From an uncultured Clostridium sp. (GTDB lineage Bacteria > Bacillota > Clostridia > TANB77 > CAG-508): DNA of 40,640 nt. The stretch covers positions 1 through 40,640 of the forward strand of contig CAMMTN010000014.1 of assembly GCA_946499885.1 (NCBI GenBank). The letters run 5' to 3'. Both the position numbers and the translations under genes were made by a program. This document shows, one piece after another, positions 2,167-26,241 of this stretch. Under the pieces are notes generated by a model. The model worked only from the letters and a program-made list of their open reading frames with translations. It did no database searches and was not told the DNA's origin. The stretch's first letter is position 1; every line of letters starts with the position of its first letter.

Positions 2167-2207
2167 AAAAAGAGAAATAAACTAAATATAAATTTATTTC
2201 TCTTTTT
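2167..2207. terminator. Bidirectional intrinsic terminator
   Basis: A 15-bp perfect stem (AAAAAGAGAAATAAA with its complement) has a loop of about 11 bases and an A run on one side and a T run on the other. It lies between the convergent radical SAM gene and the leftward regulator gene, and overlaps the latter's stop codon. Confidence 0.85.
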
Positions 2208-2922
2208 ATTTTTTCTGTCTTAAATAATATTCTGTTATATTTTTTATAAAATTTTTCGGTGTAATTGTAGTTTCATTTTCAAAAAGTTTAAATATACCTA
2301 TATTACTGTTTCGTTCTCTATAATTATTTACAGATTTAAGAGCATTTCTCATTGCTGGTCTAACAGAGCTATATGAAACATTAAATTCCTTTGCAACTAA
2401 ACTAAAGATATTGTTTAAAGAATTTAATAATCTAGGTGTTTTATAACATTGAATAATTGCATATTTAATATAATCAGTACCAATATGCTCATTATATAAA
2501 TTACATTTATAAAACAAAGCTCTTAAATTTTTTTCGTTTGGTTCATAGAAAATTATATTGTCTAAATTATATTGTTCTATTCCTTTTCTAATTTTTTCAT
2601 AATCTAAAGAATAAAACAACTTATAAATTTTAGCCATAAAGTCTAATTCGATTTTTTCTCCATTGTCTTCCACAGTAAGAATTACATTTGAATTGTTTCT
2701 TTCAAGTGATGTAGATGAAAGTTCATTAAGTATCTCAGTATATCTCTTATCTTTAAAGTCAGAGTTTATTACTAGTACATTTGGGTGAATTTTATTATAC
2801 ATATTCACTGTACTTATTCCACTGTTACAACTTTGTACATCAAGATTTTTATCATTTGCAAGATATTGACAGCAATTTAAGTTTGCTACAGAGTTTTCAT
2901 CAGCCACAAGAACTTTTATCAT
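2206..2922 (-). CDS. Spo0A-like transcription regulator of module A
   Basis: The 238-residue protein has the two-part layout of Spo0A. Residues 1-100 look like a receiver (KVLVADEN with D8/E9), but the acceptor aspartate is replaced by N53, and KDKR replaces the usual following motif. Residues about 130-238 match the Spo0A C-terminal DNA-binding domain: GTDYIKYAI, then FSLVAKEFNVSYSSVRPAMRNAL (split here as FSLVAKEFNV and SYSSVRPAMRNAL), then TPKNFIKNITEYY. The start has a GGAGG site. It is divergent from the sigma-like gene at 3499, with Spo0A-box-like sequences between them, so autoregulation and control of the module are likely. It is not the host master Spo0A: the receiver is degenerate and the context is a mobile-type module. 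Phosphorylation-independent control is an inference. Confidence 0.78.
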   Translation of the reverse strand: MIKVLVADENSVANLNCCQYLANDKNLDVQSCNSGISTVNMYNKIHPNVLVINSDFKDKRYTEILNELSSTSLERNNSNVILTVEDNGEKIELDFMAKIYKLFYSLDYEKIRKGIEQYNLDNIIFYEPNEKNLRALFYKCNLYNEHIGTDYIKYAIIQCYKTPRLLNSLNNIFSLVAKEFNVSYSSVRPAMRNALKSVNNYRERNSNIGIFKLFENETTITPKNFIKNITEYYLRQKK

Positions 2923-2957
2923 TGCTTACCTCCACAAATGTTATAAAATTTGAGACT

Positions 2958-2986
2958 ATTATATCATAGTTATTATGTAAAATCAA
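2958..2986 (-). promoter_or_regulatory. Sigma-A type promoter of the Spo0A-like gene
   Basis: On the minus strand, TTGATT (2986-2981) and TATAAT (2963-2958) are separated by exactly 17 bases. The -10 ends 36 bases before the ATG at 2922. Confidence 0.72.
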
Positions 2987-3000
2987 TATATAATACCATT

Positions 3001-3022
3001 TTTTGACAATTTGTTTTCGACA
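3001..3022. promoter_or_regulatory. Two Spo0A-box-like sites
   Basis: On the minus strand, TTGTCAAAA (3001-3009) and TGTCGAAAA (3014-3022) contain the TGTCRAA core of the Spo0A box. They lie just upstream of the regulator promoter and 13 bases apart. Binding is inferred from the motif and the neighbouring Spo0A-like gene. Confidence 0.5.
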
Positions 3023-3498
3023 GAATTCGCCATTTTATGCAGATTGGATGATATTTTTTAGCCTTTTTAAACCCTGATTAAGCCCTTTTTAACCTAACTA
3101 CCACAAAACTCTTAAAAGAAAATATAATCTAATCAACTTAATCAAGGTCTGAAAAGGAGGCTAATCAAAAGAATTATAAAGAACAAAAGAAAATTACTAT
3201 AAATATTTCGGACTTTGATGAGTTAAAAATACCCCCTAAAAATCAAAACTCCTTTTAGAAATTGTTAAGTCAATTTTCTTTTAGGAGTCTTCTATGTTAA
3301 AAGGTTTGACTAATAATAATACTTATAGCAAATTAAATAATATAAAAGATTTTTTAAAAAACTTATTATGCCTTTTTTTAGAAATCAAGTATGCAGTTAT
3401 ATCATGTGTACTTGATTTTTTTCATATTATAGAACTTCACTGTCGTAGCCCACCTAAAATTCATTTCAAAAAATTTGAAATGAATAGGAGGAAAGACA
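3023..3498. other. Long intergenic region upstream of the sigma-like gene
   Basis: No convincing gene was found. A short frame (about 3157-3259) follows AAAAGGAGG but has no normal start codon. An imperfect hairpin lies at about 3248-3287. A 12-bp perfect inverted repeat (3459-3470 with 3474-3485) ends one base before the AGGAGG of the gene at 3499, so it could influence initiation. The motif CCCACCTAAAA at 3450-3460 recurs in module B at 24350-24360. An open frame at 3294-3518 overlaps these signals and has no ribosome site or recognisable family. Confidence 0.5.
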
Positions 3499-3954
3499 GT
3501 GCAATACGAAGTAGATAGTTATACTTTAGAATATATAGAAGATGAAAATAAATATTACATATCATTTGTAGATAGTGCAGAGCAAGACTGTAGAATTCAA
3601 ATTGATAAGGAAATATTTGATACATATATGAAATCAAAGAAAGCATATACAAAGATAAAAAATGAAACAAGTAGACATCTAGAACATTCTTTATTAACTG
3701 ATGAAGAAATATATAATAGAGCTTTTGATCCAGTTGAAAGTGTAGAAGAAACTGTTATAAAAAATATAGAAAAAGAAAAAATCAATCAAGCAATGCAAAA
3801 ACTTACAGAAGCTCAATATAGAAGAATAGATTTACATATTGTAAATGAAATTACTATAAGAGATCTAGCTAAAATAGAAAAAGTACAAAAAAAGCAAATA
3901 GAAAAGAGTCTTCAATTAGGTTTTAAAAAATTAAAAAAAATTTTTAAACAATAG
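3499..3954 (+). CDS. Sigma-70-like regulator (region 4 type), module A
   Basis: The 151-residue protein starts at GTG 3499 with AGGAGG seven bases upstream. Residues about 1-50 are a beta-rich leader (YTLEYIEDENKYYISFV). Residues 95-151 form a sigma region 4-like helix-turn-helix (INQAMQKLTEAQYRRIDLHI, then TIRDLAKIEKVQKKQIEKSL). No clear region 2 is visible. Such small proteins are common in integrative elements of Clostridia and phages, where they drive or modulate element genes. It stands where module B has a sigma factor with regions 2 and 4. A terminator follows at 3980. It may act as a partial sigma factor or as a stand-alone HTH regulator. Confidence 0.7.
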   Translation: MQYEVDSYTLEYIEDENKYYISFVDSAEQDCRIQIDKEIFDTYMKSKKAYTKIKNETSRHLEHSLLTDEEIYNRAFDPVESVEETVIKNIEKEKINQAMQKLTEAQYRRIDLHIVNEITIRDLAKIEKVQKKQIEKSLQLGFKKLKKIFKQ

Positions 3955-3979
3955 GGGGGACAAAATCAATTTTTATGAG

Positions 3980-4020
3980 CAAATAAGTGAAGGGGTAAGA
4001 ATTACTCTTTCACTTATTTG
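3980..4020 (+). terminator. Terminator after the sigma-like gene
   Basis: A 12-bp stem (CAAATAAGTGAA with TTCACTTATTTG) is followed by TATTTTAAAA. It separates the sigma gene from the leader RNA. Confidence 0.7.
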
Positions 4021-4029
4021 TATTTTAAA

Positions 4030-4277
4030 AATAAACGCACATTGAAAATTGAATAACATTCATTAAAAAACATCTATTATCTAAGCTAGTTTAAATAGAG
4101 AATCAGAACTTTATACTAAAATATAAGTTAGCGACTTATAATGCGATGAAGATAATATTAATAATGATACTCTTGTCCAGTCATAGTTCGAGCGTTAAAA
4201 GCGTCCCAAGCATTGAGGGCAAATCTGGAATACCAGGTAGGTGAAAATCCTGTGAATGATTTAGCTAATCATTTTTT
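4030..4277 (+). ncRNA. Structured leader RNA of module A, possible antiterminator
   Basis: There is no open frame here. The region begins with GCACATTGAAAATTGAATAA (4037-4056), which resembles the boxA antitermination sequence of Bacillota rRNA operons. It continues with AGTCATAGTTCGAGCGT (4179-4195), GCATTGAG (4210-4217), a CTGG-AATA-CCAG hairpin (4225-4236) and GGTGAAAATCC (4240-4250). All of these recur in the same order in the leader of module B on the opposite strand (24116-24409), although the sequence between them differs; this is the pattern of a conserved RNA. It ends in an intrinsic-terminator-like hairpin (4255-4277) before two small genes. A role in conditional read-through is inferred. 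I do not recognise a named RNA family. Confidence 0.68.
4255..4277 (+). terminator. Terminator-like hairpin at the end of leader A
   Basis: AATGATT and AATCATT pair around a short loop, followed by a run of T to 4277. It lies about 36 bases upstream of the first small gene, so read-through would control the downstream operon. Confidence 0.6.
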
Positions 4278-4313
4278 AATGAATTAAATATAAATAATAA
4301 AGTGGAGGAAAAA

Positions 4314-4475
4314 ATGATTATTGTATGTATATTATTATTTTTAATTAGTTTATTTATGTACTTAATAATTGTTGGCGGTAATCTAAATAAATCTGATTAT
4401 GAAAAAATGTTAGAAGATGAAGAACAATTAAAATATATAAAAAGTTATAAAAATAAAGTGGAGGATAAAAATTAA
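4314..4475 (+). CDS. 53-residue single-helix membrane protein, module A
   Basis: The start has a GTGGAGG site seven bases upstream. Residues 1-21 are a hydrophobic helix (IIVCILLFLISLFMYLII), then a polar tail with LEDEEQLKYIKSYKNK. The module B protein at 23894-24064 has the same plan and tail (LEDEEQIKYLNEYQEK), so the two are paralogues. This supports the gene despite its small size. The stop codon directly abuts the next start at 4476. The function is unknown; it may be a membrane-anchored regulatory or stability peptide of the element. Confidence 0.8.
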   Translation: MIIVCILLFLISLFMYLIIVGGNLNKSDYEKMLEDEEQLKYIKSYKNKVEDKN

Positions 4476-4703
4476 ATGGAAAAAATTTTTATAGATAGAG
4501 AAAATGGTATAGCATATACTGTTTTAGCAATATATAGCATTTATCATAGTGCTAATAAAGAAAGAACAATTAATGAACTTGTAGATGAAATTAGGACTAT
4601 GTTTGATGTTCATAACAATCAAGAACAATTAATGAAATTAATGAAAAGAATTATGTCAAAAAAAGAAAAACTAATGATAACTGTAGATGTAAAGGTAAAA
4701 TAG
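4476..4703 (+). CDS. Small conserved module protein (75 aa)
   Basis: The ATG follows the stop of the upstream gene with no gap; GGAGG lies 12 bases before it. The soluble protein has a core AYTVLAIYSIYHSANKERTI that matches SYGLIALHNLLNSANEVNIK in the module B protein at 23691-23882, including the SAN motif at the end of a helix. The remainder is helical and rich in Lys, Met and Glu. It lies between the small membrane protein and the recombinases, as in module B. No function is known to me; a DNA-binding or recombination directionality role would fit the position but is not shown. Confidence 0.7.
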   Translation: MEKIFIDRENGIAYTVLAIYSIYHSANKERTINELVDEIRTMFDVHNNQEQLMKLMKRIMSKKEKLMITVDVKVK

Positions 4704-4747
4704 TTTTAGATTTTTACAAAAGATTTCCTTCATTTTATATAAAAAAT

Positions 4748-4819
4748 ATGTTAGATATTATTTCAATGATTATATTTATAATTTTTATGATATTGTTATG
4801 TATGATTTTGATAAATTGA
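4748..4819 (+). pseudogene. 23-codon relic similar to the module B membrane protein
   Basis: The first 21 bases, encoding MLDIISM, are identical to the start of the module B small membrane protein (24064 leftward). The rest is a short hydrophobic stretch that stops after 23 codons, and no ribosome site is visible. It is probably a recombination remnant, but an expressed micropeptide is possible. Confidence 0.45.
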
Positions 4820-4859
4820 ACTATTATCCGAATAATAAACAATTAAATATTTGTCAAGT

Positions 4860-4891
4860 GTGCAAATCTATTATTTATTTTAGATTTGCAC
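4860..4891 (+). terminator. Terminator between small genes and recombinases, module A
   Basis: An 11-bp perfect stem (GTGCAAATCTA with TAGATTTGCAC) is followed by CTTTGTTTTT. It would stop transcripts before the recombinase genes unless read through. Module B has a terminator in the equivalent place (23667-23692). Confidence 0.85.
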
Positions 4892-4957
4892 CTTTGTTTT
4901 TACTAATGAAGATATGCTAAATTTATAATACAAAATAGTGAAAGGAGTCATATAAGT

Positions 4958-5980
4958 ATGTCTTTTTTGAAATATCAAAAACAAAGTCCAGAATTTCTTA
5001 GCAATTATCTAAAATACAAGAGATATATAGATTTCGGTGCTCAAACTACTACTGATGAAACTTTTTTTGATTTAAGAACTCTATTTAGATATGTTAAATT
5101 ATATTTATATGATAAAAATAAACTAGTAAATATAACAAAAGAAGAATTTAAAAAAATAGATATAACAGATGTAACTATAGAAGATTTGGAAAAAATGAAT
5201 CAAAACGATTTGCAAAATTATCTTTTCTTTTTAGACAGTACTTTAGAAAATGTTAGTAAAACAAGGAATAGAAAGTTAGCCTCTATGAAACGATTATATG
5301 AATATTTAGAAACAAATAATCTAATTAATGTAAATCCTACAAAATGGATGCAATCTGCCACAATTGAAAAAAGACAACCTAAATATTTAGATTTAAAAGA
5401 AAGCAAACAATTACTTGCCAATACTATAAATTCTGATAGTAGATACAAAATAAGAAATTATGCAATAATATGTATATTTTTAAATTGTAGCTTAAGACTT
5501 TCTGAATTAGTAGGAATTAATTTAACGGATTTAAAGATAGATAACAGTGAACAATCATTAAGAGTTACAGGAAAAGGAAATAAGCAAAGAATTTTATATC
5601 TAAATAGTGCTGTTTGTGAAGCTATAAATACTTATTTAAAAGTTCGACCACCATTAGATAAAAGTAACAAAGATTATAATGCTTTATTTCTTAGTTCAAG
5701 AGAAAAAAGGATTTCTCAAAGGTCTGTTCAAGACATTATTAAATCGGAACTCAAAGAATTAATGGAATCGAAAGGAAAAGAAAGTGCAAAATATCATACA
5801 CATACATTAAGACATTCTTGTGCAACACTTCTTTATAATGAAGCTAATGTAGACATATTTGTATTAAAAAGAATTTTAGGACACGAATCTTTAGTAGCAA
5901 CAGAAGTTTATACGCATGTTTCAGATAAAAAATTAAGAGAATTAATGCAAAATTTTAATATTTTAAATAGGAAGGATTAA
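4958..5980 (+). CDS. Xer-type tyrosine recombinase, first of a tandem pair
   Basis: The 340-residue protein has an N-terminal core-binding domain and a C-terminal catalytic domain. All catalytic residues are visible: Arg in CSLRLSEL, Lys in GKGNKQR, HTLRHSCAT, LGHESL and the nucleophile in EVYTHVS. The length is somewhat above XerC/XerD (about 300). An AAAGGAG site precedes ATG 4958. It is followed six bases later by a second recombinase of the same type, so the pair may act together on asymmetric sites as XerC and XerD do. A dif-like 28-bp site lies 1.26 kb downstream of the pair. They could be the host Xer system or the recombinases of module A; the leader RNA module upstream favours a mobile origin. 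Confidence 0.88.
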   Translation: MSFLKYQKQSPEFLSNYLKYKRYIDFGAQTTTDETFFDLRTLFRYVKLYLYDKNKLVNITKEEFKKIDITDVTIEDLEKMNQNDLQNYLFFLDSTLENVSKTRNRKLASMKRLYEYLETNNLINVNPTKWMQSATIEKRQPKYLDLKESKQLLANTINSDSRYKIRNYAIICIFLNCSLRLSELVGINLTDLKIDNSEQSLRVTGKGNKQRILYLNSAVCEAINTYLKVRPPLDKSNKDYNALFLSSREKRISQRSVQDIIKSELKELMESKGKESAKYHTHTLRHSCATLLYNEANVDIFVLKRILGHESLVATEVYTHVSDKKLRELMQNFNILNRKD

Positions 5981-5986
5981 TATAAT

Positions 5987-6973
5987 ATGAGTGAAATAAA
6001 AAAACCTAATTTTGTTGAAGATTTTGCTAATTACTTAGTTGCAATTAAAAATCTATCACAAACATACATAAAAAATATGACTGTTACAATAGAGCAGTTT
6101 TTAGAGTTTATTAATGTTCATAAGTTTAAAAATAAATATAATTCTATAGAAGATATTACTTTAAACGAAATTAGAAGCTTAAATAATAGCGATATATATA
6201 GTTTTATATTCTTTTTAGCTGAATCACACTATCAAAATAATTCAAGAGTTATAAAAATTGAACATTTAAAAACATTTTTTGATTACCTTTTTAGAATAAA
6301 ACATACTATTTTTAAAGAACCCTTTAAAAAAATTAATAGTGAAAGAAAGTTGGTTAAGAAATTGCCAAAATATTTATCATTAGAAGAAAGTAGAAGACTT
6401 CTAAAAATTTATGAAAATAGTACAGATGAAGTTGAAATTAGAGACAATGCAATGCTACATCTGTTTTTAAATTGTGGTCTGCGACTGTCCGAAATAAAAA
6501 ATTTAAACATAAAAGATATAAGCTTAACTGATAATAAATTCACTATAATTGGTAAAGGTAATAAAGAAAGAACAAATTATTTAAATTTAAAAACAAAAGA
6601 AGCTCTTATGAAATATTTAAAAATAAGAGATAATTTTAGTAAAAATAATAAAAATGATGATAAAACTCTGTTTCTAACTTGTTATGGATACAGAATGAGT
6701 CAATTTACTATAAATAAAATTGTAAAACGAGCATATAGAAAAGCAAATTTGGATGATAAGGTATATACTGTTCATACATTGAGACATACCTGCGCAACCA
6801 TTTTATATAGAGCTGGAGTTAATATTAAAACAATACAAGAACTATTAGGACATGTTCAAATTGATACTACAGAAATTTATACACATTTAAATGATCAAGA
6901 GGTTAAAGAAGTTATGCTTAATCATCCATTAGCACAATTTAAAATAGCTGATGCTCTTGCTTATTGCGCTTAA
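5987..6973 (+). CDS. Xer-type tyrosine recombinase, second of a tandem pair
   Basis: The 328-residue protein shows CGLRLSEI, GKGNKERTNY, HTLRHTCATIL, LGHVQIDTTEIYTH, giving an intact Arg-Lys-His-Arg-His-Tyr set. GGAAGGA lies at the end of the preceding gene, with only six bases between stop and start, so the pair is co-transcribed and probably co-translated. The two proteins are related but clearly distinct, which suits a heterotetramer on a site with two different half-sites. The substrate could be the dif-like sites at 8231 and 14320 that flank the inovirus; this is inference from position and site architecture. Confidence 0.88.
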   Translation: MSEIKKPNFVEDFANYLVAIKNLSQTYIKNMTVTIEQFLEFINVHKFKNKYNSIEDITLNEIRSLNNSDIYSFIFFLAESHYQNNSRVIKIEHLKTFFDYLFRIKHTIFKEPFKKINSERKLVKKLPKYLSLEESRRLLKIYENSTDEVEIRDNAMLHLFLNCGLRLSEIKNLNIKDISLTDNKFTIIGKGNKERTNYLNLKTKEALMKYLKIRDNFSKNNKNDDKTLFLTCYGYRMSQFTINKIVKRAYRKANLDDKVYTVHTLRHTCATILYRAGVNIKTIQELLGHVQIDTTEIYTHLNDQEVKEVMLNHPLAQFKIADALAYCA

Positions 6974-6997: not shown

Positions 6998-7327
6998 ATG
7001 AAAGAATTAGAAGTTAAATTCGATACAAATAATATTCATTCTGTAGAATTAAATCTACTAGATGGACAAGTCGAAATAATTTTAAGAGCTTTAGAGTTAT
7101 ATGCCTATAATTTGGATTATATGTTAAACAGTAACGACTCTACTAATGAAATTATGCAAGAAAAAACAGCTTTACTAAAATATACTTATGAACAAGTATT
7201 AGCAACTCAAGCAGAACAAGTCGCTAGTAAGAGTAATAACATAGATAACATACCACAAATAGGTAAATTAATAATAAAGGATGGTATAAAAAATAATGGA
7301 TTATGTGTTGAATTAAATGTTGGATAA
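6998..7327 (+). CDS. Unknown protein downstream of the recombinase pair (109 aa)
   Basis: AAGGAGG lies seven bases before the ATG, and the gene follows the second recombinase by 24 bases, so it is probably in the same operon. The product is acidic and soluble, with helices in the middle (QVEIILRALELYAYNLDYML) and a beta-rich end (IGKLIIKDG, LCVELNVG). No family is recognised. It may be an accessory factor of the recombinases or an unrelated passenger. Confidence 0.65.
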   Translation: MKELEVKFDTNNIHSVELNLLDGQVEIILRALELYAYNLDYMLNSNDSTNEIMQEKTALLKYTYEQVLATQAEQVASKSNNIDNIPQIGKLIIKDGIKNNGLCVELNVG

Positions 7328-8230: not shown

Positions 8231-8258
8231 ATTGCGCAAAACTTTGATTTTGTGCAAT
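8231..8258. other. dif-like site, left attachment site of the inovirus
   Basis: The arms ATTGCGCAAAA and TTTTGTGCAAT flank the centre CTTTGA, the 11-6-11 plan of Xer sites. By my alignment each arm matches the E. coli dif arms at 8 of 11 positions. Wider flanks extend the inverted repeat to 17 bp per arm. The centre and right arm recur exactly at 14331-14347, giving a 17-bp direct repeat that brackets the phage genes. Confidence 0.75.
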
Positions 8259-8342
8259 AAGGTATATTTTTTAATATGGGAATATATATTGATATTCCCT
8301 ACTTTTTATTAATAAGAACTTTTATAATAATTATATATCATA

Positions 8343-8600
8343 TTATCTAAAAAAATTCAATACTTTTTTTGAAACTTTTTTAGGTTTTTTCATTTGTATA
8401 GTAACATATTTTTCAAAATTTGTATCTAATTCAAGTAATCTCTCATATAAATAAAAAACATTTGTATATTTAAATTCCTGTTCTTCAGTATCTTTTTTAA
8501 TAGACCAAATGTTATTTAGATTTAAAACAAACAATTCTAAACCAGTTAAAATATAATTTATTTCTTCTTCATATAATTCGATGTTAATTTTTTTTAAAAT
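8343..8600 (-). CDS. Small inovirus protein with a probable non-standard start
   Basis: The frame has no ATG, GTG or good TTG near a ribosome site. It is open up to a GGGGGG site at 8607-8612; an ATT at 8598-8600 sits six bases from it and would give 85 residues. A TTG at 8534 would give only 63 residues and lacks a site. The product is helical with a basic end (KKPKKVSKKVLNFF). A consensus promoter lies upstream (8643-8671). It is divergent from the membrane protein gene at 8727, so a role in lysogeny control or copy control is possible. No family is recognised. Confidence 0.5.
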   Translation of the reverse strand: MLKKINIELYEEEINYILTGLELFVLNLNNIWSIKKDTEEQEFKYTNVFYLYERLLELDTNFEKYVTIQMKKPKKVSKKVLNFFR

Positions 8601-8642
8601 AATTATCCCCCCTATTTTATAATAAAAATATACATCAAATAT

Positions 8643-8703
8643 ATTATATCAAATTTATGTAAACATGTCAAAAATTGACAAAAAATTTAATTTATGATTA
8701 AAT
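8643..8703. promoter_or_regulatory. Divergent promoters sharing a palindrome
   Basis: Leftward: TTGACA (8671-8666), 17 bases, TATAAT (8648-8643), a perfect sigma-A promoter. Rightward: TTGACA (8675-8680), 17 bases, TTAAAT (8698-8703). The two -35 boxes form the palindrome TGTCAAAAATTGACA (8666-8680), which also contains a Spo0A-box-like core. This looks like a small operator switch. Confidence 0.7.
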
Positions 8704-8726
8704 ATATGACAAAAGGGGTGATTTTT

Positions 8727-8984
8727 ATGTATTCAGATTTAAAAGCATATTCATTACATATACAAATGTTAGAAATAATAAATATTATACTTTATTTTAT
8801 AATTATAGTAACAGGAACAATAATAGGATATATTATTTCTAAACAATTTATTATAGCATTTGTAGGATTTTTATTGGGTATATTAATTGGATATTTTATA
8901 TATGCAATAGGACAATTAAAAGCAGACCAACATAAAATGCAAATAGATATATATAGAGCAATAATAGAAAAAAAGAGTGAGTAA
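8727..8984 (+). CDS. Two-helix membrane protein of the inovirus
   Basis: ATG 8727 is preferred over the ATG at 8694 because AGGGGTGAT lies seven bases upstream. The 85-residue product has two membrane helices (IINIILYFIIIVTGTIIGYI and FIIAFVGFLLGILIGYFIYA) and a polar C-terminus. It is the only prophage gene on the plus strand and faces the rep gene tail to tail, 11 bases apart. An immunity or superinfection-exclusion role would fit a divergently expressed membrane protein of a prophage, but nothing in the sequence proves this. Confidence 0.65.
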   Translation: MYSDLKAYSLHIQMLEIINIILYFIIIVTGTIIGYIISKQFIIAFVGFLLGILIGYFIYAIGQLKADQHKMQIDIYRAIIEKKSE

Positions 8985-8995
8985 TCTCATTCTTT

Positions 8996-10033
8996 TTATA
9001 TCACTTCTTTCCATTCAAAAGGATTAAAATTAATTGTATTTTCTTCAAAATCAACATCTAATTTTTGTGAAAAATCAATACTAGCTTTTTTTAACTCTCT
9101 TATATTTGTATAATATACATTTTTAGAACTTCTTTTCTTTACTATATCAAGACCATCTAAAACAATGCTTAAATAAAAATTATATAATCTTCTACCTTTA
9201 GTCTTTCCATATAAATTTAATAATCTGTTTTCAACATCTTCCCTACTTCTAACTTTTTTTAAATCATTTTCATATAATTTTAATAACTTCATAAATTCAT
9301 CACACCAAACCTTTTTTAAATCATTATAAAATAAATTTCTAATCCTAATATATTTTTTACCAAATAAATTAAATAACTTCTTCTTTTTTATTTCTACTTC
9401 AAACCTAATAAAACCATTAATACAATTTAAATAATTTATTAAATTAAAATCAGTATTTTTAAATTTTTTTAAATCGTGTTTTTTAAACTCTGCGTACTTA
9501 TTATATATCTTTAATGTGGTAGATGTACCAGAAAAATAAATACCAGTTCCGCCATAATCACCATAATTTTTTAAAGTTCTTCTAGGATAATCGCACATAT
9601 GTAAATTTGAAAGATATTTTAATACATTTTCTTGCTTCTCCAAATCAAAACAAATTGCAACATCTACCCTATTAATAAACCAATGTTGTATAGAAGGTAG
9701 TTTTATTTTATAAGCATTTTCAGTAAATTTTATTAGATTATTACATATAGAATATAAGTTATAAAAACCATTATGGCTATTGTACCCCATAACTATTTTA
9801 TGATAACTTCCTTCAATTTCTATATAGTAACCATTACAAAAGTTATACTTTGAGCCATTATCTACCCTAACACTTAAACTACTATCATAAGAACCAATTA
9901 AATGGTCATTTATAATATTATAAAAAACTTCACCAGTACTAGTTTTATAGCTAGTTTTAATAATACTTTTGTCTTTTATTATATCATATGTATTTTTATT
10001 AATCATTGTATATATTTTAACTGTATCTATCAT
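8996..10033 (-). CDS. Phage replication initiation protein (rolling circle)
   Basis: The 345-residue protein shows RVDVAICFD (122-130), then GTGIYFSG and KIYNKYAEF (163-183) and a later FIRFEVEIKKK. These fit the Rep_trans/phage CRI family, which nicks the origin and starts rolling-circle replication of small plasmids and filamentous phages. ATG 10033 has an AAGGTGA site. The hairpin-rich region directly upstream (10053-10200) is the probable origin. It is the last large gene of the leftward phage transcription unit. I did not identify the catalytic tyrosine with certainty. Confidence 0.78.
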   Translation of the reverse strand: MIDTVKIYTMINKNTYDIIKDKSIIKTSYKTSTGEVFYNIINDHLIGSYDSSLSVRVDNGSKYNFCNGYYIEIEGSYHKIVMGYNSHNGFYNLYSICNNLIKFTENAYKIKLPSIQHWFINRVDVAICFDLEKQENVLKYLSNLHMCDYPRRTLKNYGDYGGTGIYFSGTSTTLKIYNKYAEFKKHDLKKFKNTDFNLINYLNCINGFIRFEVEIKKKKLFNLFGKKYIRIRNLFYNDLKKVWCDEFMKLLKLYENDLKKVRSREDVENRLLNLYGKTKGRRLYNFYLSIVLDGLDIVKKRSSKNVYYTNIRELKKASIDFSQKLDVDFEENTINFNPFEWKEVI

Positions 10034-10052
10034 AAACTCACCTTAAAAAATA

Positions 10053-10200
10053 TAGTTTGTACCAAATTTGGTACTGTCGGAGGGTGTTACTAAGAACCCT
10101 CCTTTCACTCAAGCGCCGTGAGGCTGTCTATTCCCTACGGGCTACCCAGCACTCAATTTTGCATTGCAAAATTTGAGTGCTATGTGCTAACGCACTTCAG
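10053..10200. other. Hairpin-rich, GC-richer region: probable phage origin
   Basis: It holds the 16-bp palindrome GTACCAAATTTGGTAC (10059-10074), a GGAGGGT/ACCCTCC hairpin (10079-10102), a small AGC/GCT hairpin (10112-10125), a 16-bp stem with one bulge (10148-10181) and a GTGC/GCAC hairpin (10184-10195). Base composition is clearly richer in G and C than its surroundings. It lies between coat genes and rep, as the intergenic region of Ff phages does. The exact nick site is not identified. Confidence 0.7.
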
Positions 10201-13746: not shown

Positions 13747-13748
13747 AA

Positions 13749-21651: not shown

Positions 21652-22096
21652 ACTTTTCCTCCTTGTGCATTTGCACTGACAATTGATGTTGATACTTATG
21701 ATGTAATTGAGGATATATATATTACATCTATTAATAATTATAGATGTTTTATGTAAATTTGTCAATATTTCATTACAAATTTTTACCACAGCAGTTTTTA
21801 TATTTCTTTCCACTTCCACAAGAAGTAGCTGCTTATGTATTATCAATATATTTAATATTTATAATATTATTGATATTTCAGGCTTTTGGAGGACTAAGTA
21901 ACATTAAAATTATCAATATTATTAGTATTATTTTTATTATAAATATCATTTTTCTGTGGACAAATCGTGGACAATGTCAACATCCGTTTACCACACTCAT
22001 TATATTCTATTACCAAATATAATCAAATGTATAAATTATCTTTTTATACATTATTCGTTCTTATTATATTATTTTTTTAAACAATAGTCAATGAGT
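21652..22096. other. Gene-poor junction next to the integrase
   Basis: Apart from the SecA-tail remnant (21773-21832), no gene is supported. It holds a direct repeat GTGGACAA (21957 and 21968) and a 10-bp inverted repeat (22026-22035 with 22043-22052). The left end of module B should lie here, since its integrase is terminal. Confidence 0.5.
21773..21832 (-). pseudogene. Remnant of a SecA-type C-terminal zinc motif
   Basis: An open stretch of 19 codons reads AATSCGSGKKYKNCCGKNL and then stops. It is the last part of the SEC-C motif (C-P-C-G-S-G-x-K-Y-K-x-C-C) that ends SecA proteins, missing the first cysteine and everything before it. As secA usually lies just upstream of prfB in this orientation, this may be the displaced 3' end of secA, cut off by the insertion that carries the integrase. 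Another SEC-C protein is the alternative. Confidence 0.6.
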
Positions 22097-22138
22097 AAGA
22101 AAATTACAAGAAATCATAAGAAAATTACAAGAAATCAT
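22097..22138. repeat. Two tandem 21-bp repeats beside the integrase gene
   Basis: Two exact copies (22097-22117, 22118-22138) of a unit starting AAGAAAATTACAAG. Adjacent repeats at the int end of such elements are usually arm-type binding sites of the integrase N-terminal domain. The second copy covers the stop codon of int. Confidence 0.75.
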
Positions 22139-23409
22139 AAATCAATTTTATATTTAATTATTTCTTTTATGGTTTTTGATTGTATTATGCTGTCATATAT
22201 ATCAGTTGCATATTTGCGAGATTCTTCTGTGCTTGATATGTAAAAATTTTCTGTTGTTTCGATATTTTTATGTCCTAAAATATCTGCAACATCTCTGATT
22301 TCAACTCCATTTTTTAATATTTTAGTTGCATAACTTCCTCTTAAATCATAAAACCTACTCTTAATTCCTAATTCATTACGAATAATCTTAAATGGTGAAC
22401 GAGTTATATCTGTTCCTGTATAAGTCCCATCTTCTTTAGTAAAAACTAAATCTATATCGTTTTCATATTTTTCGTTAGGATTATTTTTTACTATTCGCAT
22501 TTCTTTTATTTTGCCAGAAGTATTTTTTACATATTCAATATGGTAATAGACATATCTATCTCCATAAAGTTTTTTCAAATAATCTTGTTTATTTTTGTAA
22601 TTTCGCAATGCAAACAATAAAGTATTGCTTATATGAATTTTCCTTGTTCCTGATTTAGTTTTTGTGCTTCCCAAAAACCATCTTCCCTTATCATCTTTTG
22701 GTTTATCATATACATTGTGCTTAATATTTATAGTTCCGTTACTAAAATCTATATCGTCCCAAGCTAATGCACATACTTCTCCTGTTCTCATTCCTGTATA
22801 ACAAGCTGTTAAGAACACACAAGTAAATGTATCGTTATCTTTAAATTTGTTTAATATTTTATCTATTTCTTCTTGAGTATATAAATGTTTTATATTTTCT
22901 TGCATTTTGTCGAATCGTGGCAATCGTAAATCTCTAGCAGGATTATACTTTATAAATCCATAAATATTACAAGCATCTCTAAAAGATCCTTTTAGTACCT
23001 TTAAAATATTTTTAAAATATGCTGGTGCAAAATTATTTTCTTCACAAATTTCAGTTATAAATGAATTAAGTTTTACACTTGTCAATGTTGATAATCTATA
23101 TTTGCCTAATTTAGGAACTATGTGATTTTTTATTATATTCTTATATGCTTGTATTGTGTTGTATTTTAAATTTATTTTACAATAATTTTCTAACCAATAA
23201 TCTAAATAATCAGTATATGATATATTACATTCTTTAAATGGAATACCTGCGTTCAAATATTCCGTATATGCTTTATTTCCTTCTTCTTGTGCCTCTGCTT
23301 TTGTTTTGAATCCCGATTTTGTTATCCATTTTCGCTTTCCTTTTGCAGGAGCTATTTCAAATTGATATTGATATACTTTACCTCTCTTTTTTATATTTAC
23401 ATTAGCCAT
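22135..23409 (-). CDS. int: Integrase, tyrosine recombinase (Tn916/phage type)
   Basis: The 424-residue protein has an arm-binding N-terminal domain (VNIKKRGKVYQYQFEIA), a SAM-like core-binding domain and the catalytic domain with Arg in ACYTGMRTGEV, Lys in TKTKSGTRKI, DLRGSYAT, LGHKNIETT and Tyr in NFYISS. The usual HxLRH box reads YDLRG, so two histidine positions are changed, which some family members tolerate. The start ATG overlaps the xis stop (TAATG). It lies at the left end of module B next to tandem repeats, so it should integrate and excise that element. Confidence 0.92.
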   Translation of the reverse strand: MANVNIKKRGKVYQYQFEIAPAKGKRKWITKSGFKTKAEAQEEGNKAYTEYLNAGIPFKECNISYTDYLDYWLENYCKINLKYNTIQAYKNIIKNHIVPKLGKYRLSTLTSVKLNSFITEICEENNFAPAYFKNILKVLKGSFRDACNIYGFIKYNPARDLRLPRFDKMQENIKHLYTQEEIDKILNKFKDNDTFTCVFLTACYTGMRTGEVCALAWDDIDFSNGTINIKHNVYDKPKDDKGRWFLGSTKTKSGTRKIHISNTLLFALRNYKNKQDYLKKLYGDRYVYYHIEYVKNTSGKIKEMRIVKNNPNEKYENDIDLVFTKEDGTYTGTDITRSPFKIIRNELGIKSRFYDLRGSYATKILKNGVEIRDVADILGHKNIETTENFYISSTEESRKYATDIYDSIIQSKTIKEIIKYKIDL

Positions 23410-23651
23410 TATATATTATCATCTCCTACATTAGCAGTTAACTTTTTAATATTTGTCAAATCTGAAAGATCATTTCCTTCGTTTTCAATCAAAAATTTTT
23501 CTAATGTAGATTTTAATATTTTTGTACTTCCAAGTTTTAAAGCAGGTAGGTAACCTTTTTCTATTAAAGTGTATATATAGTTAGGACTAGAATGTAAAAT
23601 TTTAGCCACTTCTTGAACTGTATAAATTAATCTTTCACTCATTATTATCAT
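23409..23651 (-). CDS. xis: Excisionase-like helix-turn-helix protein
   Basis: The 80-residue protein (or 77 from the ATG three codons later) contains YTVQEVAKILHSSPNYIYTL and IEKGYLPALKLGS, the winged HTH_17 pattern of excisionases. Such proteins bind the element end and direct the integrase to excise. GGAGAGG precedes the starts. It is coupled to int by overlapping stop and start. The terminator just upstream (23667-23692) means that transcription from the leader region must read through to express both. Confidence 0.85.
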   Translation of the reverse strand: MIIMSERLIYTVQEVAKILHSSPNYIYTLIEKGYLPALKLGSTKILKSTLEKFLIENEGNDLSDLTNIKKLTANVGDDNI

Positions 23652-23666: not shown

Positions 23667-23692
23667 AAAAAGTCAGCATTTGCCAACTTTTT
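23667..23692 (-). terminator. Terminator between small genes and xis-int, module B
   Basis: On the minus strand AAAAAGT pairs with ACTTTTT around a short, partly paired loop, followed by TTATTTT. It overlaps the stop codon of the small gene at 23691 and is the counterpart of 4860-4891 in module A. Confidence 0.7.
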
Positions 23693-23882
23693 ATTTTTCT
23701 TTATTTAATAAAATTTCTGCATATTTTTCTGCCTCTTTTTTAGAATGTAATTCTTGTAAAGGCTCATAAAATATTTGCATATTTTTTATATTTACTTCAT
23801 TTGCAGAATTTAGTAAATTATGTAATGCAATTAAACCGTATGAAACAACTTGTTTCCAATTATATATTTTTCTCTCCATCAT
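23691..23882 (-). CDS. Small conserved module protein (SAN motif), module B
   Basis: A GGAGG site overlaps an early ATG, so the start is one of two adjacent ATG codons at about 23882. The protein (about 63 residues) contains VVSYGLIALHNLLNSANEVN, which aligns with the module A protein at 4476-4703, and a Lys/Glu-rich helical tail. Its place, between the small membrane protein and the recombinase genes, is the same. The function is unknown. Confidence 0.65.
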   Translation of the reverse strand: MMERKIYNWKQVVSYGLIALHNLLNSANEVNIKNMQIFYEPLQELHSKKEAEKYAEILLNKEK

Positions 23883-23893: not shown

Positions 23894-24064
23894 TTATTTT
23901 TTATTTATTTTCTTTTCTTGATATTCATTCAAATATTTAATCTGTTCTTCATCTTCTAATTCTTGTTCTTCTGGGGTTTTTTTACTCCCACCTATAATAA
24001 TTAGAATTAAAGGTAATCCAATTAATATAAACATTAATATAGCCATTGAAATAATATCTAACAT
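23894..24064 (-). CDS. 56-residue single-helix membrane protein, module B
   Basis: A CGGAGG site lies eight bases before the ATG. A membrane helix (ISMAILMFILIGLPLILIII) is followed by a Glu/Lys tail with LEDEEQIKYLNEYQEK. It is the paralogue of the module A protein at 4314-4475. Its first 21 bases also recur at 4748 in module A. The conserved polar tail suggests a cytoplasmic partner; no function is known. Confidence 0.78.
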   Translation of the reverse strand: MLDIISMAILMFILIGLPLILIIIGGSKKTPEEQELEDEEQIKYLNEYQEKKINKK

Positions 24065-24115: not shown

Positions 24116-24412
24116 TTAGATATTTTTCTTTTTTACTTTTTCCCATTTGTTAGACTGCTATTGTTTCTAGCAACATTGGAATTTCACCAACCAGAACTCT
24201 GGCTTGTACTCATTGCGTGTGACGCACCATTATAAAAGTATTATGGACTACCTTTATAACTTTACGCTCGTGCTGTGACTATACAAAAGTTTCCTAAACT
24301 GTCTTCACAATAAGATAACATTCCTATTGTTAATTTAAGTGGTCGATAACCCACCTAAAACGCAGCTCTTGTATGATCTAACAAATACATTATTCAATTT
24401 TCAATGTGCAAT
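24116..24412 (-). ncRNA. Structured leader RNA of module B
   Basis: There is no open frame. Read on the minus strand it has GCACATTGAAAATTGAATAA (24409-24390), identical over 20 bases to leader A, then AGTCACAGCACGAGCGT (24280-24264), GCAATGAG (24216-24209), CCAG-AGTT-CTGG (24202-24191, strand-reversed) and GGTGAAAT (24188-24181). Order and spacing agree with leader A, while connecting sequence differs. The extra segment near 24240 can pair locally. The boxA-like start and the downstream terminator suggest processive antitermination. It is not a known riboswitch that I recognise. Confidence 0.68.
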
Positions 24413-24491
24413 CCATACCAGAAGTTTTTTACGCTTCTACTATGAACAGCACTTGAAAACGAAAAAGGTTACGTTTTTTTTATAAATTTTT

Positions 24492-24704
24492 TTATTTAGC
24501 CAATTTTTCTGCAAAATTTTCTTCTTTTACTACACTAATTGCGTATTCAATTAAAATACTCTTTAAATCTTGGTCTATAACATTTTTTTCATTTAAGGAA
24601 TATTTATCAATAAGAGGCATTATCTTTCCTATTACTAAAATCATTGACACTTCATCTGTTCTTGCCTTTACTAATATTTCATAAAATTTTGTTCTATTTT
24701 TCAT
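24492..24704 (-). CDS. Small HTH-type protein of conjugative-transposon kind
   Basis: The 70-residue protein (EILVKARTDEVSMILVIGKI, then PLIDKYSLNEKNVIDQDLKS, then ILIEYAISVVK) fits the short helix-turn-helix proteins that accompany a sigma factor in Tn916-like elements (the orf8 position). In Tn916 the pair takes part in element regulation. The gene overlaps the sigma gene by 11 bases, and its ribosome site lies within that gene, so the two are coupled. Confidence 0.72.
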   Translation of the reverse strand: MKNRTKFYEILVKARTDEVSMILVIGKIMPLIDKYSLNEKNVIDQDLKSILIEYAISVVKEENFAEKLAK

Positions 24705-25113
24705 AATTTCCCTCCATATATTTTTTCAAATTATTTATTGCTCGTAATTTCAACTGTTTTACTGCATTTTCGTTTATATTCATTTCTTCAGCAATAATTT
24801 TTATTTTTTTATTTTCATAATAGTATTTAACTATTACTTTTCTTTGATTATCATTTAATTTATTTAAAGCAAATTTCAAATCTCTTTTACTAAAAAAAGA
24901 ATGGTCAGAATTACCCCTATTAGATAACTCTTCCCATTCTTCATTAGACATAGATATTTCCTTTTCTAATAAATATTTTTTATGTCTTAAATAATTTAAG
25001 CGTCTGTTTAATAAAGCCTTTCTCATATAATTTATGTACCTTGCAAATACAATATCGTTTGAAAATTCTTTTTCTTGATATATACATTTTTCGTCAATAT
25101 CCTTTCTTTTCAT
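24694..25113 (-). CDS. Sigma-70 family factor of module B
   Basis: The 139-residue protein has a region 2-like part (FARYINYMRKALLNRRLNYL, residues 24-43) and a C-terminal region 4 helix-turn-helix (LNDNQRKVIVKYYYENKKIK, then IIAEEMNINENAVKQLKLRA, residues 86-125). Such short factors sit next to HTH_16 genes in Tn916-type elements and direct or modulate element transcription. It is divergent from the Spo0A-like gene at 25510. A short hairpin with CCAATC and GATTGG arms lies about 20 bases upstream of the start. Confidence 0.8.
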   Translation of the reverse strand: MKRKDIDEKCIYQEKEFSNDIVFARYINYMRKALLNRRLNYLRHKKYLLEKEISMSNEEWEELSNRGNSDHSFFSKRDLKFALNKLNDNQRKVIVKYYYENKKIKIIAEEMNINENAVKQLKLRAINNLKKYMEGNYEK

Positions 25114-25509
25114 TTTCTTTCTCCAATCTTCTTAGATTGGACAAATGCCTGAAAAATCAAAGAAAGTTATTAACTTATAAAACTTATCTTTTTATTTTCT
25201 ATTTAATTATTACCCCATATCTAATCCCCCCATAACAAAAGTCTGTAAAATAATACAGCATATTTTTTAGCATCTTTTGAATCTTATTTTTTATCTACTG
25301 TGCTTTAATATACTTCCTTTAATTTTACAGACTTCTGTCCTAGAAAAAAGAATATACTCTTTTTTCTAGTTTGTCATAAAATCAGCAACAATCGGAAAAA
25401 ATACGCAAAAATCAGCTTATTTTGTCGAATAGTTTAAGGCTATATAGCCAATGGTCATTCATTCTTCCTTATGGTAAAATTTGTATATCATTATTAGGAG
25501 GGTGTTATT
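25114..25509. promoter_or_regulatory. Divergent control region of module B
   Basis: It contains a perfect Spo0A box TTTGTCGAA at 25421-25429 and a near match at 25370-25378 (TTTGTCATA). An 11-bp stem-loop with T runs (TAGAAAAAAGA with TCTTTTTTCTA, 25341-25368) resembles a bidirectional terminator. A 12-bp inverted repeat AAGTCTGTAAAA (25239-25250 with 25323-25334) flanks an AT-rich spacer. The extended -10-like TGGTAAAAT lies near 25475. Confidence 0.6.
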
Positions 25510-26241
25510 ATGGTTAAAATCATAATTGCCAATAATAATGATATTTTTTACAACAGCTTATCTAATATTCTTTTGCAAGATGAACTAAATATTGAACTAA
25601 CAAAAGTACCACCAAACAAGTTAGGAAAACTAATTTGTAAAATCAAACCAAAAGATAATGTAATAATATTGGACTCAAAAACTTCAGTTATATTTGTAAA
25701 AAATATATTGAAGAATGCAATTGAAAATGTAGATACTAAAAAAGTGAATATCATTATTTTGGTGATCAATTCTGATAGCATATCCAATATTAAATACGAA
25801 TACCATTATCACTTTTTTAAAACTTCTAATCATACAAATTTACTTGATATTGTAAAACTAGTGTCTGATTCCTTAAAAGATTGTTTAGAAATAGAAAAAT
25901 CAATTAATGATTTATTAAATAGTCTTGGATTTACTTATTATTTTAAAGGAACTATTTATTTGAAGGATGCAATTCTATTTGCATATACTGAACGAAATTT
26001 ATTATATGATACAAAAGCGCTTGTGAAAAAAGTTGCAAAAAAATATAAAATAAAAAACGATAGAATTGTTCGCTCTGATATGGATAGAGCCTTAAATAGT
26101 ATGCTAACTTATATTAATAAGGATAAAATTTACAATATTTTTGGAAAACATTATGATGGAAGAATAATTAGTTTAAAATATTTTATTGACTTGTGTATTC
26201 GATATTTAGAAGAACAACGATATTGCTGTTTAGAAAATTAA
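25510..26241 (+). CDS. Spo0A-like transcription regulator of module B
   Basis: The 243-residue protein starts behind AGGAGG. The receiver-like N-terminus keeps an acceptor-like D55 (NVIILDSK) but lacks most of the acidic pocket (IIANNND). Residues about 130-243 match the Spo0A DNA-binding domain: INDLLNSLGFTYYFKGTIYL, KDAILFAY, VKKVAKKYKIKNDRIVRSDM, ALNSMLTYINKDK and ISLKYFIDLCIRYL. It is divergent from the sigma gene, mirroring module A, and a perfect Spo0A box lies in the shared promoter region. It is a mobile-element regulator related to Spo0A, not the sporulation master regulator. Confidence 0.78.
   Translation: MVKIIIANNNDIFYNSLSNILLQDELNIELTKVPPNKLGKLICKIKPKDNVIILDSKTSVIFVKNILKNAIENVDTKKVNIIILVINSDSISNIKYEYHYHFFKTSNHTNLLDIVKLVSDSLKDCLEIEKSINDLLNSLGFTYYFKGTIYLKDAILFAYTERNLLYDTKALVKKVAKKYKIKNDRIVRSDMDRALNSMLTYINKDKIYNIFGKHYDGRIISLKYFIDLCIRYLEEQRYCCLEN

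What the first reader, a model, noticed from the sequence alone, without database searches (positions are those of the whole stretch)
2206..26241. Two copies of one mobile-element control module with different recombinases
Module A (2206-6973) and module B (26241-22135, reversed) share order: Spo0A-like regulator divergent from a sigma gene, leader RNA, small helix protein ending in LEDEEQ-KY, small SAN protein, terminator, recombinase(s). Module A uses a tandem Xer pair; module B uses a Tn916-type int with xis. The tiny proteins are paralogues by sequence. No conjugation gene is visible in either. This looks like a portable regulatory cassette that I do not know as a described system.
Basis: partly seen in the sequence, partly recalled or inferred. 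Interest (0 to 1): 0.85.

Follow-up and report, generated by a model that had tools for sequence, protein, structure and literature searches.

The report
Shared antitermination switch for mobile elements
Two mobile elements in a gut Clostridia genome carry the same control cassette in front of different DNA-recombining enzymes, and its untranslated RNA belongs to the same family as the Tn916 RNA that lets RNA polymerase run through stop signals, joined here to a signal otherwise known from ribosomal RNA genes.

Summary
Both modules have the claimed order; leaders and tiny proteins are homologous. A covariance model trained on 26 sequences from outside the window finds leader A (102 bits, E 1e-21) and leader B (72 bits, 1e-14). 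Leader A is Rfam pemK (RF02913; B is below its cut-off), an RNA for which I found no function in the papers held. The model also finds the canT stretch of a Tn916-type element (101 bits); canT is an experimentally shown cis-acting processive antiterminator (PMC11658703), and that paper mentions neither pemK nor boxA. New here: an rRNA-type boxA upstream, at the strict cut in 31 of 38 relatives' loci (expected 0.29) and 20 of 59 further loci (expected 0.13). The cassette is portable: 74 of 88 leaders precede a recombinase within 3 kb, 50 serine and 24 tyrosine; a serine and a tyrosine case share 91% of the leader. So this is the Tn916-type regulation module (orf7/orf8/canT), widened. In the window's relatives a Spo0A-like regulator with 0A boxes can replace orf9. 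Antitermination is inferred for the window; the boxA role is untested.

The parts
2206..2922 (-). Module A: Spo0A-like regulator (Spo0A_C domain, degenerate receiver), divergent
   Evidence: Pfam 38.9 bits, cut-off 25; Response_reg 13.3 bits, below cut-off 30.2
3016..3022 (+). Module A: canonical 0A box TTCGACA in the divergent intergenic region
   Evidence: 0A box in 8 of 8 Spo0A-like modules counted
3499..3954 (+). Module A: region-4-type sigma-like protein
   Evidence: NCBIfam sigma70-ECF 32.2 bits, below cut-off 42.9; PHROG 11138 3.8e-9
3983..4016 (+). Module A: terminator-like hairpin T0 with the GTGAAGGGG motif just upstream of boxA
   Evidence: -16.5 kcal/mol; motif enrichment
4036..4055 (+). 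Module A: rRNA-type boxA
   Evidence: 14 of 15 pattern positions
4151..4259 (+). Module A: pemK/canT-family leader RNA
   Evidence: R1 102.3 bits, 1e-21; Rfam RF02913 at 4161-4255, 41.9 bits, gathering 34.8
4302..4475 (+). Module A: small protein s1 (LEDEEQLKY), N-terminal hydrophobic stretch by eye
   Evidence: profile from other loci 1.8e-20
4476..4703 (+). Module A: small protein s2 (SAN)
   Evidence: profile from other loci 2.4e-8
4854..4895 (+). Module A: terminator-like hairpin between s2 and the recombinases
   Evidence: -15.8 kcal/mol
4958..5980 (+). Module A: Xer-type tyrosine recombinase X1
   Evidence: Pfam Phage_integrase 1.2e-33; XerC profile 1.8e-54, below its equivalog cut-off
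5987..6973 (+). Module A: Xer-type tyrosine recombinase X2
   Evidence: Pfam 7.8e-42; XerC profile 2e-59, below its equivalog cut-off
6998..7327 (+). Module A: 109-aa protein of unknown function that follows the Xer pair
   Evidence: 59% identical homologue after the Xer pair of G037, L066; no Pfam match at 0.1
8231..8258 (-). Chromosomal dif-like site (11-6-11) downstream of module A
   Evidence: same site in 4 of 5 rho flanks of relatives (L275-L278, not L279)
25510..26241 (+). Module B: Spo0A-like regulator, divergent
   Evidence: Pfam 39.1 bits, cut-off 25
25423..25429 (-). Module B: canonical 0A box TTCGACA
24694..25113 (-). Module B: region-4-type sigma-like protein (Tn916 orf7 position)
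   Evidence: Sigma70_r4 4.2e-12, 45.8 bits
24492..24704 (-). Module B: HTH_16-family-like protein (Tn916 orf8 position)
   Evidence: profile from nine outside sequences 2.2e-6; no Pfam match on its own
24391..24410 (-). Module B: rRNA-type boxA
   Evidence: 15 of 15 pattern positions
24169..24308 (-). Module B: pemK/canT-family leader RNA
   Evidence: R1 72.2 bits, 1e-14; Rfam only 22.3 bits, below gathering
23894..24064 (-). Module B: small protein s1 (LEDEEQIKY)
   Evidence: profile from other loci 1.2e-14
23691..23882 (-). Module B: small protein s2 (SAN)
   Evidence: profile from other loci 2.4e-18
23668..23693 (-). Module B: terminator-like hairpin between s2 and xis
   Evidence: -9.2 kcal/mol
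23409..23651 (-). Module B: excisionase-type HTH_17 protein
   Evidence: Pfam 6.2e-11; NCBIfam excise 32.5 bits, cut-off 28.8
22135..23409 (-). Module B: Tn916-type tyrosine integrase (arm-binding, SAM_3 and catalytic domains)
   Evidence: Pfam 8.2e-22, 2.6e-14, 3.3e-6
21779..21820 (-). Remnant of the secA 3' end (14 matching codons) beside the integrase: insertion point of element B
   Evidence: tblastn with the secA ends of four relatives; relative's gene confirmed as SecA with SEC-C by Pfam

Best explanation
Both modules are copies of one portable control cassette of integrative elements, the Tn916-type regulation module. A promoter between the divergent regulator and the sigma-like gene (inferred) transcribes the regulator genes and then a leader made of a boxA and a canT/pemK-family RNA. 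boxA would load NusB and S10, and the folded RNA would modify RNA polymerase so that it reads through the terminator ahead of the recombinase and, after excision, through the joined ends into the element's other genes (as shown for canT in Tn916). The recombinase behind it is exchangeable: serine, Tn916-type tyrosine, or tandem Xer pair. In this host group the regulator is a Spo0A-like protein that would bind 0A boxes, tying the element to the sporulation or stationary-phase network. Shown by sequence: RNA homology to canT, boxA, 0A boxes, and near-identical leaders before different recombinase classes. Inferred: antitermination in these two copies, Nus dependence, the Spo0A link.
For: R1 (26 training sequences, without A, B or Tn916; one is the third copy of the same genome) finds A 1e-21, the canT stretch of the Tn916-type element of pCF10 2.3e-21, B 1e-14, next 0.9. 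Rfam pemK lies between orf8 and xis of that element (55.0 bits, E 6.4e-9), where canT was mapped (section 10 of PMC11658703); the stretch is 100% identical in records annotated as Tn916 excisionase (H23, H24). Structure: 19 of 23 pairs with changes on both sides, 97.8% of cells paired, 0 of 500 shuffles as high on any of five measures. boxA at 14/15 or better: 31 of 38 and 20 of 59 loci, expected 0.29 and 0.13. A pattern search in 26 genomes hit 2 rRNA spacers, 2 pemK leaders and 1 unassigned place. Recombinase behind 74 of 88 leaders; controls 1 of 25 and 0 of 24. Leader 91% and sigma protein 88% identical across a serine and a tyrosine case (L149, L167). 0A box in 8 of 8 Spo0A-like modules: 12 boxes in about 3.7 kb, about 0.32 expected from the background rate. 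Terminator-like hairpin between RNA and recombinase in 20 of 79, shuffled 6.7.
Against: No antitermination was measured here. 59 of 79 loci show no terminator by my rule between RNA and recombinase. The more conserved terminator lies upstream of boxA, not downstream, which plain antitermination does not explain. In Tn916 canT was needed for conjugation genes, not for excision, so control of the recombinase itself may not be its main task. 12 of 54 class loci lack a recombinase by my rule; six of them begin with ParA/ParB-like genes (Pfam for L134). boxA was first seen in set 1, so only set 2 is an independent test; there 39 of 59 miss the strict cut and 20 of 59 also miss 13/15. The downstream control comes from set 1 only; in set 2, 18 of 60 loci have recombinase ORFs starting 3.5-6 kb downstream as well. 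Loci are not independent (near-identical pairs such as L074/L075).
Confidence: 0.8

Rival explanations
1. rRNA- or CRISPR-type role only: boxA shields the long untranslated leader from Rho, and the pemK fold does something else (stability, translation of s1 or PemK).
For: boxA is of the rRNA spacer type; the leader is some 250-300 nt of apparently untranslated RNA; this genome has rho (14774-16108).
Against: canT of Tn916, same RNA family, overcame intrinsic terminators, heterologous ones included, and acted processively (PMC11658703, abstract and passages).
Confidence: 0.12
2. Ordinary attenuator or riboswitch-like leader: pemK senses a signal and controls only the next gene (s1 or PemK).
For: Rfam types pemK as Cis-reg; a PemK-like gene follows within 1 kb in 4 of 34 and 13 of 54 loci.
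Against: The next gene varies (s1, s2, PemK, xis, recombinase, ParA); homology to canT.
Confidence: 0.06
3. Common descent without exchange: each recombinase class keeps its own old leader lineage, and the cassette is not moving.
For: Some groups of look-alike loci keep one class (L176, L177, L179-L181, all serine).
Against: Most similar leaders across classes: L149/L167 91% with sigma 88%; L045/L046 88% with sigma 72%; tndX behind a canT-family leader whose upstream genes bear the same protein accessions as orf9 and orf7 of the pCF10 element. No leader tree was built.
Confidence: 0.05
4. The leader acts as DNA (accessory recombination or origin site) rather than as RNA.
For: It lies close to recombinases in most loci.
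Against: Compensatory base pairs; canT is orientation-specific, acts in cis and is most likely an RNA (PMC11658703).
Confidence: 0.03

Closest known systems
Tn916 regulation and recombination module (orf9 | orf7, orf8, canT, xis, int), fetched as the Tn916-type element of pCF10 (L284)
   Same: Same order: divergent regulator, sigma-like gene, HTH gene, boxA, canT/pemK RNA, xis, int. B matches it part for part.
   Different: Divergent regulator is Spo0A-like with 0A boxes, not the HTH protein at the orf9 place; two extra small proteins; A lacks the HTH_16 gene and xis and has an Xer pair; no conjugation gene named in the window.
canT antiterminator RNA of Tn916 (Wirachman and Grossman 2024, PMC11658703)
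   Same: Same RNA family by model R1 and Rfam pemK, same orientation and place.
   Different: Activity tested only for Tn916; boxA, pemK, Rfam, NusB and rRNA have 0 occurrences in that paper.
Tn5397-type element with tndX (name partly recalled; L287, E. faecium plasmid)
   Same: Same protein accessions as the pCF10 element for the orf9- and orf7-type genes, a canT-family leader (R1 120 bits), but the serine recombinase TndX behind it: a precedent for the exchange.
   Different: One exchange; here it is seen across serine, tyrosine and Xer-pair recombinases in a class-wide sample.
vanB element of pMG2200 (Tn1549-type, name recalled; L285)
   Same: sigma-70 gene, HTH gene, canT-family RNA (R1 112.8 bits), excisionase, integrase.
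   Different: boxA weaker (13 of 15); no Spo0A-like regulator annotated in the 10 kb seen.
rRNA spacer boxA
   Same: Same motif between tRNA and 23S in two rRNA spacers of a Clostridia genome (L094, L095).
   Different: Here it precedes a mobile-element RNA; Nus binding not tested.

Membership tests
canT/pemK RNA family | Sequence and structure match to the family, trained without A and B | tested here: met
   R1 102.3 bits (A), 72.2 bits (B), 100.8 bits (Tn916-type)
canT/pemK RNA family | Rfam RF02913 gathering score (34.8 bits): leader A | tested here: met
   41.9 bits
canT/pemK RNA family | Rfam RF02913 gathering score (34.8 bits): leader B | tested here: not met
   22.3 bits; B is filed through R1, not through Rfam
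canT/pemK RNA family | Cis-acting processive antitermination | not testable with these tools
   shown for Tn916 only (PMC11658703)
rRNA-type boxA | Sequence motif in both leaders | tested here: met
   independent set 2 test
rRNA-type boxA | NusB/S10 binding | not testable with these tools
   needs a bench test
Tn916 regulation module | sigma-like gene, HTH_16 gene, leader, xis, int in one direction: module B | tested here: met
   the 70-aa gene is HTH_16-like by an outside-trained profile (2.2e-6) but has no Pfam match of its own
Tn916 regulation module | same, module A | tested here: not met
   no HTH_16-like gene and no xis found in module A
Tn916-type conjugative element | Conjugation genes | tested here: inconclusive
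   none named in the ORFs scanned; the contig ends inside what should be element B
Spo0A | Spo0A equivalog score (cut-off 200 bits), protein A | tested here: not met
   24.6 bits; protein B was not scanned against NCBIfam
Spo0A | Spo0A_C DNA-binding domain | tested here: met
   6 of 7 members of A6; window proteins 38.9 and 39.1 bits
dif-integrated element (IMEX type), element A | dif or half-dif at both ends | tested here: inconclusive
   dif at 8231 and half-dif sites on contig C31 beside xer; the left end of element A is not in the contig

The most novel reading that the evidence does not exclude
The orphan pemK RNA and canT are one family: a boxA-bearing, nut-like, Nus-dependent processive antiterminator that serves as a standard control element of Clostridia integrative elements whatever recombinase they use, and in this host group a mobile Spo0A-like regulator reads 0A boxes to couple excision to the host's sporulation decision.
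Probability: 0.5. Interest if true: 0.85.

Novelty: new variant of a known kind. Interest (0 to 1): 0.74.

Why it matters
It would give a function to a curated but unexplained RNA family, place the Tn916 antiterminator in a family found in 120 of 391 sampled genomes of the class at E 1e-4, and suggest that these RNAs use the rRNA antitermination machinery through boxA, a point that the canT paper does not raise. It makes the question of how the canT RNA works directly testable (boxA and nusB mutants), and offers the leader as a handle for finding integrative elements that show no conjugation gene. The Spo0A-like regulators with 0A boxes suggest that some elements listen to the sporulation network.

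Tried and rejected
Leader as a mimic of the 5' end of 23S rRNA: suggested by eye and recall; rejected, mean z 0.77 against a fetched Clostridia 23S (0.18 against E. coli), controls up to 0.90, and no LSU match at E 10 in 20 loci. Module A as part of the filamentous phage: rejected; the phage lies between a half-dif at 14331 and dif at 8231 (17-bp repeats), module A is outside it, and G016 has a phage of this kind at dif (L239) but only one X1-like gene, its chromosomal xer. Module B as a 4-kb stand-alone element: unlikely, because the integrase end abuts the secA remnant and the element should extend past 26 kb. Direct A-B homology of the sigma genes: not shown. Viral-contig searches with X1 and with the phage replication protein found no relative. 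A distant DNA search of leader A in phage records gave only pieces of 9-14% of the query among the rows shown, best E 0.08. The G079 23S match lies at a contig end and was not used. Element ends of A were not resolved. Paper searches. Of PMC11658703 I saw the abstract, sections 10, 16 and 20, and passages; of PMC12691694 and PMC7288454 passages only; every other paper only as a search listing (of 30 papers with boxa and tn916, 6 were listed and none was about a leader).
Full report
WHAT WAS CLAIMED AND CHECKED. The gene order and coordinates are as stated. A: Spo0A-like 2206-2922(-), sigma-like 3499-3954, leader, s1 4302-4475, s2 4476-4703, hairpin 4854-4895, Xer-type X1 and X2 to 6973. B on the other strand: Spo0A-like 25510-26241, sigma-like 24694-25113, a 70-aa HTH_16-like gene, leader, s1, s2, hairpin, xis, int to 22135. 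Domains. The A sigma-like protein is below every curated cut-off reported and counts as a member by its place and by the family profile. Relatives with titles are uncultured Clostridia assemblies, several from gut samples.

ARE THE COPIES HOMOLOGOUS? s1: 47% identity, z 16. s2: z only 4.2 pairwise. Profiles built only from other loci (4 for s1, 8 for s2) find s1 at 1.8e-20 and 1.2e-14, and s2 at 2.4e-8 and 2.4e-18. The other loci of s1 carry serine recombinases (L057, L064, L067) or an Xer pair (L066); those of s2 carry serine (L056, L063, L064, L065, L067, L077) or tyrosine ones (L054, L058). The sigma genes are not significantly alike when compared directly (z 0.3).

WHAT THE LEADER IS. Leader A is Rfam pemK (41.9 bits, gathering 34.8); leader B scores 22.3 bits, below gathering, and has an insert. 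I built a covariance model, R1, from 26 distinct pemK RNAs of 93-102 nt out of the 98 outside loci, without A, B or Tn916; one of them (L051) is the third copy of the same genome. Its structure has 23 pairs, 19 with changes on both sides; 97.8% of cells pair against 77.0% shuffled, and slid versions reach 50.3% at most. R1 finds A (102.3 bits, 1e-21) and B (72.2 bits, 1e-14) in the window and nothing else there up to E 1.

LINK TO A TESTED FUNCTION. Wirachman and Grossman (PMC11658703; abstract, sections 10, 16, 20 and passages seen) mapped canT, a processive, orientation-specific, cis-acting antiterminator, to the stretch between orf8 and xis of Tn916. I fetched the Tn916-type element of pCF10. 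In that stretch Rfam pemK scores 55.0 bits (E 6.4e-9), R1 100.8 bits, and a perfect boxA lies 153 nt upstream of the R1 match. The stretch is 100% identical in records whose neighbouring gene is annotated as excisionase from transposon Tn916. The paper has no occurrence of boxA, pemK, Rfam, NusB or rRNA. The exact 452 bp of the paper were not at hand, so the identity with canT rests on place and gene order. Other named records with R1 matches: L287 with tndX (120 bits), L285 with the vanB cluster, xis and int (112.8), L286 (100.4), and L288 from a C. difficile plasmid (22.9 bits, E 0.005, weak).

boxA. In 40 loci of set 1, window included, a boxA pattern at 14 of 15 or better lies within 250 nt upstream in 33, against 0.29 expected from flanks; without A and B 31 of 38. 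With the pattern fixed, set 2 gives 20 of 59 against 0.13 expected, reversed pattern 0 (one of 60 loci had too little upstream DNA); at 13 of 15, 35 of 38 (expected 2.20) and 39 of 59 (expected 1.78). A narrower pattern searched in 26 genomes hit five places: two rRNA spacers, two pemK leaders and one unassigned. In the window's own genome a related pattern hits five places: the three pemK leaders, the front of the RNase Y gene (Pfam) and the front of another serine recombinase gene (by eye).

PORTABILITY. Samples. Set 1: 114 relatives, 28 with a pemK match at E 0.01, 40 matches, of which 38 outside the window were fetched and analysed (one, G073:C23, was left out, one is window A itself). Set 2: 391 genomes of the class, 120 with a match, of which I fetched the best match of 60 genomes not yet sampled, in rank order, so high scorers are favoured. 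With at least 2.5 kb downstream: 34 of 38 give 19 serine, 13 tyrosine, 2 neither; 54 of 60 give 31 serine, 11 tyrosine, 12 neither; six of the 12 begin with ParA/ParB-like genes (Pfam for L134). The recombinase profiles were trained on set 1 and then widened with set 2. Controls: 1 of 25 (3.5-6.5 kb downstream) and 0 of 24 (1-4 kb upstream), all from set 1. In set 2 runs of recombinase genes go further: 18 of 60 have one starting 3.5-6 kb downstream. A sigma-like gene lies upstream in 21 of 33 and 35 of 54, an HTH_16-like gene in 14 of 33 and 9 of 54. Pfam: 22 of 24 HTH_16-like (24 of 25 given) and 47 of 57 sigma-like proteins (57 of 61 given) match HTH_16 and Sigma70_r4_2. Closest leaders across classes: L149 (serine) and L167 (tyrosine), 91%, with sigma 88%; L045 and L046, 88%, with sigma 72%.

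REGULATOR INPUT. In 8 of 8 modules where a divergent Spo0A-like gene and a sigma gene were both found, the intergenic region has a canonical 0A box (motif recalled): 12 boxes in about 3.7 kb, background 0.086 per kb. Four modules with the other regulator type (L043-L046) have none; L077, with a short relative of that type, has three. L074 and L075 are near-identical. A ninth Spo0A-like match, L073, lies on the other strand and was not counted. These proteins are Spo0A-like in the DNA-binding domain (6 of 7); protein A is not Spo0A by the NCBIfam cut-off (24.6 bits against 200).

TERMINATORS. Between RNA and first recombinase 20 of 79 loci have a terminator-like hairpin, shuffled 6.7; A and B are among the 20. 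A second one lies just upstream of boxA in 24 of 76 (5 in one shuffle each), with a conserved GTGA-purine-GGG motif in 27 of 76 (0.09 expected); A has the hairpin, B is not in the list. I cannot yet explain this one: it may stop leak-through from the regulator genes, or be part of the RNA, like boxB of rRNA leaders (recalled).

SURROUNDINGS. Module A lies next to what looks like the chromosomal dif: the 28-bp site at 8231 recurs in 4 of 5 rho flanks of relatives (L275-L278, not L279), half-dif sites lie on contig C31 next to the chromosomal Xer-type gene (Pfam), and the homologous Xer-pair module of G037 (L066) also has a dif. A 6.1-kb filamentous prophage (G2P-type replication protein over cut-off; Zot-like by PHROG 1.3e-5, Pfam Zot below cut-off) occupies 8242-14347 at the same dif; it is a neighbour, not part of the module. 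Module B is inserted in secA: 14 matching codons remain at 21779-21820, while four of eleven relatives examined show an intact secA end as the longest frame before prfB and a fifth shows it further upstream. The regulator and transporter genes at 26.4-40.6 kb may thus be cargo of B.

HOW IT MOST LIKELY WORKS. Promoter before the sigma-like gene (inferred), boxA plus canT fold on the nascent RNA (sequence and fold supported), modified polymerase passes the terminator before the recombinase (inferred from canT), and in the excised circle goes on into the rest of the element (shown for Tn916, inferred here). canT was not needed for Tn916 excision, so the second step may matter more than the first.

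NOVELTY. A new, widespread variant of a known kind. What I did not find in print in the searches listed: that pemK and canT are one RNA, that it carries an rRNA-type boxA, and that Spo0A-like regulators with 0A boxes sit at the head of such modules. Weinberg-type descriptions of pemK could not be read.

Noticed in passing
window 8242-14347: Filamentous (inovirus-type) prophage at a dif-like site, flanked by 17-bp repeats; one with a replication gene of the same Pfam family lies between a half-dif and dif in G016 (L239 5047-11134).
   Followed up: partly
window 21779-21820: Only 14 matching codons of secA remain upstream of prfB; element B is inserted in the 3' end of secA. The other secA part is not in the contig.
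   Followed up: partly
L274 (contig C31) 70 and 1398: Two half-dif sites next to the chromosomal Xer-type gene (1661-2650), suggesting several elements stacked at dif.
   Followed up: partly
window 3983-4016 and 24 of 76 loci: Terminator-like hairpin with a GTGAAGGGG-type motif just upstream of boxA; role unexplained.
   Followed up: partly
L134, L142, L143, L145, L146, L162: pemK/canT RNA directly before ParA- and ParB-like genes, without a recombinase within 3 kb (Pfam checked for L134 only).
   Followed up: partly
L091 8891 (contig C3:79890) and L090 9217 (contig C15:25716): boxA-like motif in front of a serine recombinase gene (by eye, hairpin after the motif) and in front of the RNase Y gene; no pemK RNA was found there by R1.
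   Followed up: partly
L014, L027, L031: Rfam dinG RNA scores below its gathering score on the same stretches as pemK; the two Rfam families may be related.
   Followed up: no
L288 1-2939 and window 26377-40546: ABC transporter, response regulator and histidine kinase genes beside the same cassette in a C. difficile plasmid and beside module B: a recurrent cargo?
   Followed up: no
window 954-2162: Radical SAM protein with a receiver-like stretch at its C-terminus (below cut-off), directly beside module A.
   Followed up: no
L043-L046 upstream of the sigma gene: A different divergent regulator (cluster 10) without 0A boxes takes the place of the Spo0A-like one.
   Followed up: no
sigma-like proteins, alignment A3: 3 of 57 also match Pfam Phage_antitermQ (best 7.4e-4); these region-4-only proteins might act like Q rather than as sigma factors.
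   Followed up: no
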